The notes beneath the pieces were generated by a model, which made no database searches, was not told the DNA's origin, and saw only the letters and a program-made list of their open reading frames with translations. Shown piece after piece: positions 19,652 to 21,402 of a DNA stretch of 21,402 nucleotides; positions within the stretch are counted from its first letter, which is position 1, and each line of letters starts with the position of its first letter. The DNA is taken from NCBI GenBank assembly GCA_026417275.1, contig JAOADO010000024.1, positions 1-21,402 of the forward strand. Reading direction: 5' to 3'. Source of the DNA: Verrucomicrobiia bacterium (GTDB taxonomy: Bacteria > Verrucomicrobiota > Verrucomicrobiae > Limisphaerales > JAKPVM01). The translations under genes were made by a program, and so were the position numbers.

Positions 19652-20764
19652 ATGAACATCACAATCGCAAAGGAACAAATCCAATCGGGCTTGCAGATTG
19701 TCCAGAATGCTGTCGCCGGCAGGTCAAACATGCCTATCCTTTCCAACGTCCTCCTGAATGCCGAAGGAGACACCCTTGAACTAACCGGCACAGACCTTGA
19801 CATGACAGTCTCATGCAAAGTCAAAGCCCAGATAAACACCCCGGGAAAAACAACACTCCCAGCCAAGCGATTACTAAGCATAGTTAGAGAACTCCCGGGA
19901 ACAGAAATACAAATCTACGCCGAAGACGAGTCTAAATACAAAATAGAAAGTGGTCCAGCAAAATTCAAAATCTACGCCCTCCCGGCATCGGACTTCCCGC
20001 AAATAAGACAAATAAAAGAAGACAAGAAAATCAAATTCACACAAGAAAAACTAAAAGAAATGCTGAGAAGAACCGGCTTTGCCGCCGCTCAAGAAGAAGG
20101 AAGATACCTTCTAACTGGAACATACATAGAAATGAAAGACCAGAAAACAACCGTTGTTGCCACAGACGGACGAAGACTGGCCCTTGTAGAAGAAGACGTT
20201 GACATACCGGCAGACATGTCTGCAAACCTTATAATCCCGATACGCGGCGTCAATGAACTAAACAGACTGCTAAGCCAGGAAGGAGACGTCGAACTCGTCT
20301 TCATGGAAAACTTTGCCCGATTCTACATCCGGGGTGAAAAACAACCGACAACAGAAATCTCAGTCAAACTCATCGACGGCGTGTACCCGAACTATAAACA
20401 AGTAGTCCCGGCAGAATCAAAATACAGAATCGAAATCATGCGGGAAGAATTCCTATCGGTCCTCAAACGAGCCGAACTGGTCACCAGCGAAAAAAACAAC
20501 TCCGTCAAACTCACACTCTCCGAAAACACCATGACCGTAACCACCAACACCCCGGAAGTCGGCGACTTCCTCGAATCAATCGCTGTCCGATTCAACGGTG
20601 AAGAATTCTCAATTGCATTTAACCCCGCCTACCTGATAGACGCCCTTAGCGTACTTACCGAAGATGTAATCTTCTTTGAACTAACAGACCACATGAGCCC
20701 TGGCGTAATTAAAATAAATGGACCATTTCTATACGTCGTCATGCCAATGCGTCTCCAGGAATAA
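19652..20764 (+). CDS. dnaN: DNA polymerase III subunit beta (sliding clamp)
   Basis: 370 residues (E. coli 366). The dimer encircles DNA and tethers polymerase III and other clamp-binding proteins. It has three clamp domains of about 120 residues each. The first runs from MNITIAKEQIQSGLQIVQNA through RSNMPILSNVLLNA and LTGTDLDMTVSC. The second includes FAAAQEEGRYLLTGTYIEMK and VVATDGRRLALVEE. The third spans EISVKLIDGVYPNYKQVVP to the canonical end GVIKINGPFLYVVMPMRLQE. No Shine-Dalgarno precedes the ATG; the upstream bases are AT-only. Neither dnaA nor recF is adjacent in the window. The gene is on the C-rich strand, opposite most neighbours. No clear terminator follows. Confidence 0.98.
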   Translation: MNITIAKEQIQSGLQIVQNAVAGRSNMPILSNVLLNAEGDTLELTGTDLDMTVSCKVKAQINTPGKTTLPAKRLLSIVRELPGTEIQIYAEDESKYKIESGPAKFKIYALPASDFPQIRQIKEDKKIKFTQEKLKEMLRRTGFAAAQEEGRYLLTGTYIEMKDQKTTVVATDGRRLALVEEDVDIPADMSANLIIPIRGVNELNRLLSQEGDVELVFMENFARFYIRGEKQPTTEISVKLIDGVYPNYKQVVPAESKYRIEIMREEFLSVLKRAELVTSEKNNSVKLTLSENTMTVTTNTPEVGDFLESIAVRFNGEEFSIAFNPAYLIDALSVLTEDVIFFELTDHMSPGVIKINGPFLYVVMPMRLQE

Positions 20765-21264
20765 AAAAACACCACCACCCAACCCACACCCCGACAACTA
20801 TTATACCGCAGCCGCAAATGCGACTGCCCATGTCCCTTTCAACCTCCCGCGCCACAAAATCCCACATCACACTACGAAAAAGCCATTGACAAAACCCCCT
20901 TCTCCTGGGAAACTTTTAAAAAACACCCACAAATGACTACCATAACCAGAAACTGAAAAGACTTCTGCTTGTAAAGTGGGAAACTCCATAAAAAAGAGTC
21001 CCCGGCAAGCCCGTTCTTTGACATACAAACGAGCCACGGCAACCCACGAAAACCAGGAACCGGACTCTGGACGAAGAAGAATTCTACTTTAGAAAAGTCT
21101 AAGACCTCAGGTAGCGAGCCAATTGGGTCAAAAAACCCCTGGCTCGCTACCTGGGTTATAACACATTTATTTTCAAAGACTTACACATAAAGGCTGAAGA
21201 ACTGTGGACAAAAAGAGCAAAAACCGTGCCAGCGAAAAACCAGACTCCCTACCTGAGCACCGAT
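20765..21264. other. Non-coding spacer and presumed CRISPR leader region
   Basis: About 500 bases between dnaN and the CRISPR promoter, with no supportable gene. The first 180 bases keep the C/A-rich composition of dnaN. After about 20950 G and C become balanced. It holds the long stem-loop at 21108-21153 and, at 21208-21216, GTGGACAAA next to CTGTGGACAA, which on the other strand reads as the near-DnaA-box TTGTCCACA. I searched by eye for an anti-repeat complementary to the CRISPR repeat and saw none. Confidence 0.5.
21108..21153. repeat. Long perfect stem-loop between dnaN and the CRISPR array
   Basis: A 14-bp perfect inverted repeat, 21108-21121 with 21140-21153 (CAGGTAGCGAGCCA / TGGCTCGCTACCTG). 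Inside it a second short stem, GGGT at 21125-21128 with ACCC at 21135-21138, closes on a CAAAAA loop. Outside it, ACC at 21104-21106 can pair with GGT at 21154-21156 across one bulged base. No T-run follows on the + strand, so it is not a typical terminator. It may belong to the array leader, be the tip of a small RNA, or be an extragenic palindromic element. Confidence 0.8.
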
Positions 21265-21293
21265 TTGACAATTGAAAACCAAAGAGTTAGAGT
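21265..21293 (+). promoter_or_regulatory. Sigma-70-type promoter at the end of the CRISPR leader
   Basis: TTGACA at 21265-21270, a consensus -35, is followed by a 17-base spacer and TAGAGT at 21288-21293 (four of six matches to TATAAT). Transcription would begin at about 21300, at the first base of the first repeat, in the direction of the array. Position and direction fit pre-crRNA transcription. Confidence 0.55.
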
Positions 21294-21300
21294 ACCTGCA

Positions 21301-21402
21301 GTCCGAACTGGACTAACTGCCGAAAGGCAATGAAGACGCGTTTGTTATTTTCATGATTTTTCCTTTTATTTTTCCGTCCGAACTGGACTAACTGCCGAAA
21401 GG
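21301..21402 (+). CRISPR. Start of a CRISPR array (first repeat, first spacer, 27 bases of second repeat), cut by window end
   Basis: Identical 27-base blocks lie at 21301-21327 and 21376-21402, the second running into the window edge; the period is 75. If the first repeat continues through GCAATGAAGAC to 21337, it is 37 bases and the spacer (21338-21375) is 38, typical dimensions. The repeat starts GTC and ends GAC. It contains two small hairpins: GTCC-GAACT-GGAC, and TGCC-GAAA-GGCA with a GNRA tetraloop. The 3' end ATGAAGAC resembles the 8-base tag left on crRNAs of type I and III systems. The spacer is AT-rich and of unknown origin. The promoter-bearing leader lies to the left, so newest spacers would be nearest dnaN. 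The type cannot be assigned without cas genes. Confidence 0.75.

What the first reader, a model, noticed from the sequence alone, without database searches (positions are those of the whole stretch)
21301..21402. Clipped CRISPR array beside dnaN
Two identical 27-base blocks 75 bases apart run to the window edge. The first can be read as a 37-base repeat with GTC...GAC ends, two internal hairpins (one with a GAAA tetraloop) and an ATGAAGAC tail, followed by a 38-base spacer. This is strong CRISPR geometry, but only one full unit is visible. The system type, cas genes and array length are all beyond the right edge. If the window is a whole contig, the break inside a repeat is what an assembler would produce at an array.
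Basis: partly seen in the sequence, partly recalled or inferred. Interest (0 to 1): 0.75.

Follow-up and report, generated by a model that had tools for sequence, protein, structure and literature searches.

The report
Leader end of a CRISPR array
The contig stops inside the first units of a bacterial immune-memory (CRISPR) array that, judged by its relatives, serves an RNA-targeting type III-B system, and its leader carries a thrice-repeated DNA motif that in relatives varies in step with the spacer-inserting enzyme Cas1.

Summary
In detail: a 37-nt repeat (21301-21337), a 38-nt spacer (21338-21375) and 27 nt of a second repeat (21376-21402) end the contig. It is a CRISPR array. In the nearest order held, at least 26 of 320 genomes carry arrays of 37-nt repeats with nearly the same 3' half. 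24 of the 26 encode Cmr2/Cas10, against 26 of the other 294, so type III-B can be inferred; Cas3 is also commoner in them, but more weakly and never over cut-off on the array's contig. The 85 nt left of the array match the family's leader (best of 42,636 positions), so the leader end is visible. No cas gene was found in the contig; relatives keep cas1-cas2 on the leader side, where this contig has dnaN. No protospacer was found.

Beyond the finding: the hairpin at 21108-21153 belongs to a conserved leader design, an inverted motif pair plus a direct copy 100-102 bp downstream, lineage-specific but repeated within each leader. It varies with Cas1/Cas2 more than with Cmr proteins, suggesting an integrase docking site. 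Ordinary array; possibly new leader architecture.

The parts
19652..20764 (+). dnaN (DNA polymerase III beta subunit, 370 aa), the gene upstream of the leader
   Evidence: ORF; homologues named DNA polymerase III beta, Pfam PF00712/PF02767/PF02768
21108..21121 (+). leader motif, inverted copy (left arm CAGGTAGCGAGCCA of the hairpin), starts 193 nt before the repeat
   Evidence: same place in many relatives
21140..21153 (+). leader motif, first direct copy (right arm TGGCTCGCTACCTG); perfect 14-bp stem with the left arm, no T-run after it
21215..21299 (+). proximal leader: best match in the whole window to the leader profile of 22 relatives (33.3; next 9.1)
21245..21255 (+). leader motif, second direct copy CTCCCTACCTG, 102 bp after the first
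21265..21293 (+). promoter-like TTGACA-17-TAGAGT just before the first repeat (consensus match only)
   Evidence: 1 found, 0.6 expected in shuffles
21301..21337 (+). CRISPR repeat 1 (37 nt; last 8 nt ATGAAGAC = presumed crRNA 5' tag)
21338..21375 (+). spacer 1 (38 nt, 26% G+C), leader-proximal and so presumably the newest
   Evidence: sequence; no protospacer found
21376..21402 (+). repeat 2, first 27 nt, cut by the contig end

Best explanation
This is the leader-proximal end of a CRISPR array of a type III-B (Cmr) system in a verrucomicrobial contig, broken by the assembler inside the second repeat. Shown: repeat, spacer geometry, repeat-family and leader homology. Inferred: the array is transcribed rightwards from a promoter at its leader; pre-crRNA is cut at the TGCC-GAAA-GGCA hairpin, leaving the tag ATGAAGAC; the crRNA loads a Cmr complex made elsewhere in the genome, which recognises complementary RNA and makes cyclic oligoadenylate. 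The array is detached from cas1-cas2, which in relatives sit left of the leader. It keeps all three copies of the leader motif, which I read as the site where Cas1-Cas2, supplied in trans, docks to insert new spacers.
For: Repeat; the same 3' half, with one or two changed bases in most, in arrays of at least 26 of 320 order genomes, 37-nt repeats, spacers mostly 33-44 nt; the nearest repeat (G316, L169) differs at 4 of 37. Type: the G021 array, whose repeat's last 20 nt are identical, lies beside cas10/cmr2, cmr3, cmr4, cmr5, cmr6, cmr1, CARF proteins and cas1 (cas2). Fetched stretches show cmr genes in 13 of 26 array genomes, cas1 without cmr in 8, NE0113 only in 1, none in 4. Cmr2 anywhere in the genome: 24 of 26 array genomes against 26 of 294 others (Fisher 3.7e-20), and on the array's own contig in 13 of those 24, not counting the single-contig genome G056. 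Leader. Stand-alone arrays occur in relatives: G057 has no cas hit on its 10.8-kb array contig and cmr genes on another. Motif.
Against: Only one full unit is visible; a two-repeat mini-array is not excluded. No cas gene was found in the contig (12 Cas queries by tblastn at 1e-5; PADLOC models on 10 window proteins), and the contig is too short to show whether the genome has any. 2 of 26 array genomes had no Cmr2 match (G232, G266). A Cas3 model is over its cut-off in 15 of 26 array genomes against 49 of 294 others. A Cas6 model (PF10040) matched in 1 of 26 array genomes, so the processing step has no identified enzyme. In leave-one-out, 5 of the 22 relatives' leaders scored below zero against the profile of the rest. 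No protospacer was found. The exact repeat is in no genome contigs record and in none of 320 order genomes at up to 3 mismatches.
Confidence: 0.85

Rival explanations
1. A two-repeat mini-array or ectopic repeat pair (for example of the CreA kind that guards a CRISPR system), not a true growing array.
For: Only two repeats are seen; no cas genes near; ectopic repeat pairs exist (CreTA, PMC9458426, seen as search listing and start of abstract).
Against: The two repeats are identical where both are visible, and a leader with all three motif copies precedes them; relatives have 2 to 269 copies per genome.
Confidence: 0.08
2. A CRISPR array of another type (for example type I) that shares this repeat family.
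For: A Cas3 model over its cut-off is commoner in array genomes, 15 of 26 against 49 of 294 (Fisher 9.7e-6); only 13 of 26 array genomes show cmr genes on the fetched stretch; Cmr2 is missing from 2 of 26.
Against: Cmr2 is far more strongly tied (24 of 26 against 26 of 294). Among genomes without Cas3 over cut-off the tie holds (10 of 11 array genomes against 14 of 245; 7e-11); among genomes without Cmr2 Cas3 is not enriched, though that test has only 2 array genomes (1 of 2 against 37 of 268; 0.26). None of the 15 Cas3 hits lies on an array contig, by the contig numbers, while 13 of 24 Cmr2 genomes have Cmr2 on the array contig. Later stretches with this repeat family also carry cmr genes: 4 of 7 (the 3 misses being contigs under 7 kb) and 6 of 10 (the other 4 having cas1-cas2).
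Confidence: 0.07
3. An ordinary tandem or dispersed repeat, or an assembly duplication at the contig end.
For: Only two copies, at a contig end.
Against: The 37-nt unit, the spacer length and the leader all match independent genomes; 0 chance matches in shuffles.
Confidence: 0.01
4. For the hairpin: it is only the transcription terminator of dnaN (here) or of the cas operon (relatives), not a leader element.
For: It is a perfect 14-bp stem (dG -40.4 with flanks), and in many relatives it follows the end of cas2.
Against: No T-run follows it, and the terminator scan does not list it. Its right arm is repeated 100-102 bp downstream in 26 of 37 leaders at 8 of 10 or better. It is kept in arrays of two relatives with no cas2 hit upstream (L113, L115). 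Its sequence tracks Cas1.
Confidence: 0.2

Closest known systems
   Same: 37-nt repeat with the 3' half GCCGAAAGGCA[AC]TGAAGAC, spacers near 38 nt, Cmr2 in the genome; leaders of G021 and G304 homologous (G316's array is cut before its leader)
   Different: Repeat differs at 4 of 37 from the nearest (G316); the leader is preceded by dnaN rather than cas1-cas2; array length unknown
Type I-F leader inverted-repeat motifs bound by Cas2 of Cas1-2/3 (PMC12259127, passages read)
   Same: Inverted repeat motifs in the leader that dock the integrase, which folds the leader
   Different: That is type I-F and uses IHF; here III-B, three copies, sequence differs by lineage, no IHF site tested
Sulfolobus islandicus type I-A leader (PMC9456107, parts of the abstract and passages read)
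   Same: A leader-proximal motif bound by Cas1 and a distal motif (-143 to -94) that matters for acquisition; Cas1 binds stem-loop DNA
   Different: There the distal motif is bound by the regulator Csa3a and is not described as a copy of the proximal one in what I read; here both are copies of one motif
Phased upstream motifs of CRISPR leaders (Santiago-Frangos et al. 2021, Curr Biol; only its reference seen; content recalled)
   Same: Motifs at fixed phase upstream of the repeat that recruit Cas1-Cas2, with leader and adaptation proteins coevolving (recalled)
   Different: From recall those motifs were in some I-C, I-E, I-F and II-C leaders; I know of none for III-B

Membership tests
CRISPR array | Identical direct repeats of 23-50 nt at regular spacing | tested here: met
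   27 of 27 nt identical, spacing 75; the 37-nt unit is confirmed by relatives
CRISPR array | Unrelated, similar-sized spacers between at least three repeats | not testable with these tools
   Only one spacer is in the contig; relatives show arrays with spacers of similar size
CRISPR array | Leader next to the first repeat | tested here: met
   Profile of 22 relatives scores 21215-21299 at 33.3, best of 42,636 positions; next 9.1; a 1-nt indel separates it from the repeat
Type III-B (Cmr) CRISPR-Cas | cas10/cmr2 and cmr1, cmr3-6 in the genome | not testable with these tools
   No genome is held for the window; no hit in the contig
Type III-B (Cmr) CRISPR-Cas | Repeat of the family found with Cmr systems | tested here: met
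   24 of 26 array genomes have Cmr2, 26 of 294 others; Cas3 contrast 15 of 26 and 49 of 294
Type III-B (Cmr) CRISPR-Cas | Repeat hairpin with 8-nt 3' tag for Cas6-type processing | tested here: inconclusive
   Hairpin and tag present, but the Cas6 model PF10040 matched in only 1 of 26 array genomes
Three-copy leader motif of this array family | Inverted copy near -192, direct copies near -157 and -55, 100-102 bp apart | tested here: met
   Window: -193, -157, -55; 102 bp; 9 of 10 identical

The most novel reading that the evidence does not exclude
Type III-B leaders of Verrucomicrobiota carry a three-site integrase address: an inverted pair of a lineage-specific motif (36 bp apart, able to form a hairpin) and a third, direct copy 100-102 bp downstream, about 55 bp before the repeat. 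The motif changes between lineages, but the copies within a leader change together and track Cas1 and Cas2, so each Cas1-Cas2 reads its own address. Detached arrays such as this one keep the address and can be fed by Cas1-Cas2 from elsewhere in the genome.
Probability: 0.5. Interest if true: 0.6.

Novelty: new member of a known kind. Interest (0 to 1): 0.38.

Why it matters
The array itself is one more CRISPR array of a known system. What may matter is its leader: how Cas1-Cas2 of type III systems finds its own array is, to my knowledge, poorly known, and the motif gives a direct test (which bases Cas1-Cas2 must bind, and whether swapping the motif swaps the array served). It also offers a sequence-only way to assign detached arrays to the cas1-cas2 that serves them.

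Tried and rejected
Exact repeat in public collections: the 37-mer has 0 matches in genome contigs and the 27-mer 0 in viral contigs; with up to 3 mismatches 0 of 14 and 0 of 320 order genomes. Only the degenerate 3' half found relatives.

Protospacer: blastn of the spacer gave nothing in phages or plasmids, but the low-complexity filter may have masked this T-rich query. Four pattern scans of viral contigs returned 2, 0, 4 and 2 loci; over all 38 nt the eight loci match at 24-30 positions, while shuffled spacers reach at most 26 in two of the loci (100 shuffles each). Since the loci were chosen for a 20-23-nt match, 30 of 38 is not evidence of a protospacer. The reverse complement of the spacer reads as a ribosome-binding site plus ATG; dinucleotide shuffles do so in 5%, so I do not rely on it.

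Array beside dnaN as a conserved neighbourhood: not supported. A script looking for exact 20-mers repeated 50-95 bp apart found none in the 82 loci then held, 80 of them dnaN loci of relatives, some with short flanks. The closest relatives by DnaN (83%) are metagenome proteins whose contigs I could not reach.

Leader profile, exact offset: anchored at 21300 the window scores only -9.3 (rank 314 of 42,636); one base to the left it is the best of all, so the window leader has a 1-nt indel near the repeat. A 24-nt core profile alone did not single out the window leader (rank 5 in the window).

First run of the out-of-sample leader test included L224, whose leader is masked (N); it inflated every value and was redone without it.

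Cas3 contrast: run late, as a check on the type. The model matches helicases in general (312 of 320 genomes and 14 of 14 controls at E 0.001), so only matches over the cut-off were counted.

Rows dropped: the 26 array genomes are those with two or more copies at array spacing in the loci read; most of the other 132 genomes with a match had one to three scattered matches. G107 (4 copies) had no match to the second pattern and was dropped. G034 and G117, found later with a GGTGAC variant, were left in the comparison group, where both have Cmr2. Of the 13 extra genomes, leaders were fetched for 10 and 9 were usable; G332, G364 and G490 were not pursued. One search used 27 stretches of relatives plus the window; leaders without the motif (for example L117, L164, L161) are in its counts.

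Full report
What is there. The contig ends with a 37-nt repeat (21301-21337), a 38-nt spacer (21338-21375) and 27 nt of a second, identical repeat (21376-21402). No further copy lies in the window with up to 3 mismatches, and shuffles give none. DnaN's longest contig is 21402 bases, so the window is the whole contig. The organism is a verrucomicrobion: the best held genome has a 56% identical DnaN and most of the 80 loci kept are titled Verrucomicrobia, Verrucomicrobiota or Limisphaerales; metagenome proteins reach 83%.

It is a CRISPR array. The exact repeat is in no genome contigs record and in none of 320 order genomes at up to 3 mismatches. A degenerate form of its 3' half matches in 158 of 320 genomes of the nearest order, in most at one to three scattered sites; in some it repeats up to 269 times, at 71-80 bp in the loci read. 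These are 37-nt repeats with a variable 5' half and the 3' half GCCGAAAGGCANTG[AG]AGAC. I count 26 of the 320 genomes with such arrays; at least two more, G034 and G117, have a variant ending GGTGAC. The nearest repeat, in G316, differs at 4 of 37 positions; that of G021 shares its last 20 nt with the window. 14 of 29 array-bearing stretches also run to within 60 nt of a contig end.

Type. Beside the G021 array lie cas10/cmr2, cmr3, cmr4, cmr5, cmr6, cmr1, a CARF-adenosine deaminase, a CARF-PDDEXK protein, an NE0113-family ring nuclease and cas1 (cmr3 is below the NCBIfam cut-off but clear in PADLOC), with cas2 between cas1 and the array. Over the 26 array genomes, the fetched stretch shows cmr genes in 13, cas1 without cmr in 8, NE0113 only in 1 and none in 4. 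Cmr2 anywhere in the genome matches in 24 of 26 array genomes and 26 of 294 others (Fisher 3.7e-20). G034 and G117 sit in the 294 and both have Cmr2, which makes the comparison conservative. As a contrast, a Cas3 model is over its cut-off in 15 of 26 array genomes and 49 of 294 others (Fisher 9.7e-6): type I systems are also commoner in these genomes, against a simple reading. But among genomes without Cas3 over cut-off the Cmr2 tie holds (10 of 11 array genomes against 14 of 245), and none of the 15 Cas3 hits is on an array contig, whereas Cmr2 is on the array contig in 13 of 24 genomes, G056 with its single contig not counted (contig numbers). In the class, 45 of 384 sampled genomes match a related pattern; of later stretches, 4 of 7 and 6 of 10 carry cmr genes.

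Leader and orientation. A profile from the 85 nt before the arrays of 22 relatives scores 21215-21299 at 33.3, the best of 42,636 positions; the next is 9.1. It ends one base short of the repeat, a 1-nt indel. In leave-one-out 17 of the 22 relatives score above zero and 5 below, so the leader is not conserved in all. The leader end is thus visible, the array runs right, and spacer 1 is presumably the newest. A sigma-70-like TTGACA-17-TAGAGT lies at 21265-21293. In the 18 of 29 stretches with an array and a cas2 hit, cas2 lies on the leader side. In the window dnaN is there. No Cas query (12 proteins, tblastn at 1e-5) hits the contig, and PADLOC models on 10 window proteins give no cas gene: matches only to a branching enzyme, an ABC ATPase and an ABC permease that shares a non-CARF part with CARF fusion models. 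Arrays without cas1-cas2 occur in relatives: G057 has no cas hit on its 10.8-kb array contig but cmr genes on another. Arrays beside dnaN are not a conserved trait as far as tested: none was found in 80 dnaN loci.

The leader has an unexpected design. The hairpin at 21108-21153 looked like a dnaN terminator but has no T-run and is not listed by the terminator scan. Its right arm recurs 102 bp downstream at 21245-21255. Many relatives have the same plan: an inverted copy near -192, a direct copy near -157 and a direct copy near -55. The motif differs between lineages (GGTCCCTACCTG, GGTTTGACCT, GGTTAGACC, GGCCTCGTGACCT) but is repeated within a leader. Over 28 leaders (27 relatives and the window), the proximal copy matches its own upstream copies better than those of others: 0 of 20,000 permutations for the direct and 0 of 20,000 for the inverted copy. 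At fixed spacing the signal is at 102 bp (0 of 5,000) and 101 bp (29 of 5,000); the other spacings tested from 98 to 106 do not reach 5%.

Out-of-sample test. I then fetched leaders from 10 further genomes; one was masked and dropped. In the 9 left, the signal is at 101 bp (own 7.44 of 14 against 5.31, 13 of 5,000 permutations), not at 102 (4,293 of 5,000); of 12 spacings tested one other, 106 bp, gave 26 of 5,000. The inverted arm also follows its own leader there (47 and 26 of 5,000 at two registers). Counting all 37, 26 leaders have the direct copy, 28 the inverted copy and 25 both, against 0.4, 1.5 and 0.06 on average in shuffled leaders.

Which protein reads it. In 31 loci with cas1 and cas2, the motif's distance follows Cas1 distance (rho 0.55, 0 of 1,000) and Cas2 distance (0.47, 0 of 1,000). 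The two upstream copies also follow Cas1 (0.28, 12 of 1,000; 0.24, 16 of 1,000), as does a zone at -30 (0.20, 19 of 1,000); nine other zones lie between -0.06 and 0.08. On the subsets of loci where each is present, the motif does not follow Cmr4 (16 loci, 0.12, 168 of 1,000) or Cmr3 (13 loci, -0.07, 652 of 1,000), and only doubtfully Cmr6 (18 loci, 0.19, 54 of 1,000); the NE0113 protein is weak (25 loci, 0.26, 30 of 1,000), while Cas1 on the same subsets gives 0.50 to 0.57. Against this: within the main Cas1 clade (21 loci) Cas1 falls to 0.28 (30 of 1,000) and Cas2 to 0.04 (319 of 1,000), so much of the signal comes from the split between divergent adaptation modules. In at least one locus the cas1 used is not next to the array (L220). 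Shared descent of leader and cas1 alone could give part of the signal, although it would have to spare the rest of the leader.

How it most likely works. Shown: array, leader, repeat family, family-wide tie to Cmr2, motif architecture. Inferred: transcription from the leader, cutting after the GAAA hairpin to leave ATGAAGAC, loading into a Cmr complex encoded elsewhere, RNA-triggered immunity; spacer insertion by Cas1-Cas2 acting in trans at the three-site leader. The processing enzyme is unknown: a Cas6 model matched in 1 of 26 array genomes.

Spacer. No protospacer was found; a T-rich query that a filter may mask is a weak test. Its reverse complement resembles a ribosome-binding site and start codon, a pattern that 5% of shuffles also show.

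Literature. Leader motifs and inverted repeats that dock Cas1-Cas2 are known for type I-F (PMC12259127, passages) and type I-A (PMC9456107, parts of the abstract and passages). For type I-D only a title in a reference list was seen. Searches that could have found a III-B leader motif of this kind (the lists of 51 and 60 show 15 of 48 and 12 of 63 papers) listed none that I recognised as describing it; I read only the passages named. The survey most likely to bear on it (Santiago-Frangos 2021) was seen only as a citation.

Noticed in passing
window 21108-21255 and leaders L113, L118, L119, L173, L208, L215-L222: Three-copy leader motif (inverted pair plus direct copy 100-102 bp downstream) whose sequence is lineage-specific and follows Cas1; see novel case.
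   Followed up: yes
window 21338-21375: The reverse complement of spacer 1 reads as a ribosome-binding site followed by ATG and an open frame, so a type III crRNA would be antisense to a translation start; 5% of dinucleotide shuffles do the same.
   Followed up: partly
L122 10380-12329; hits in L167, L168, L219-L222: CARF-adenosine deaminase genes (PADLOC CARF5--CARF_ADA for L122) recur in these verrucomicrobial III-B loci (the others by tblastn only).
   Followed up: no
26 array genomes: The Cas6 model PF10040 matched in only 1 of 26 (G262, inside a 1011-aa frame), so these systems may use a divergent or different processing enzyme.
   Followed up: partly
L119 6834-8300; tblastn hits in L173, L165, L223: A reverse transcriptase with a group II intron maturase domain (PF00078, PF08388) lies beside cas1 in some of these loci: either an intron or a sign of spacer acquisition from RNA.
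   Followed up: partly
L054: A public MAG titled Klebsiella pneumoniae carries a DnaN of this verrucomicrobial group (48% to the window), so the title is probably wrong.
   Followed up: no
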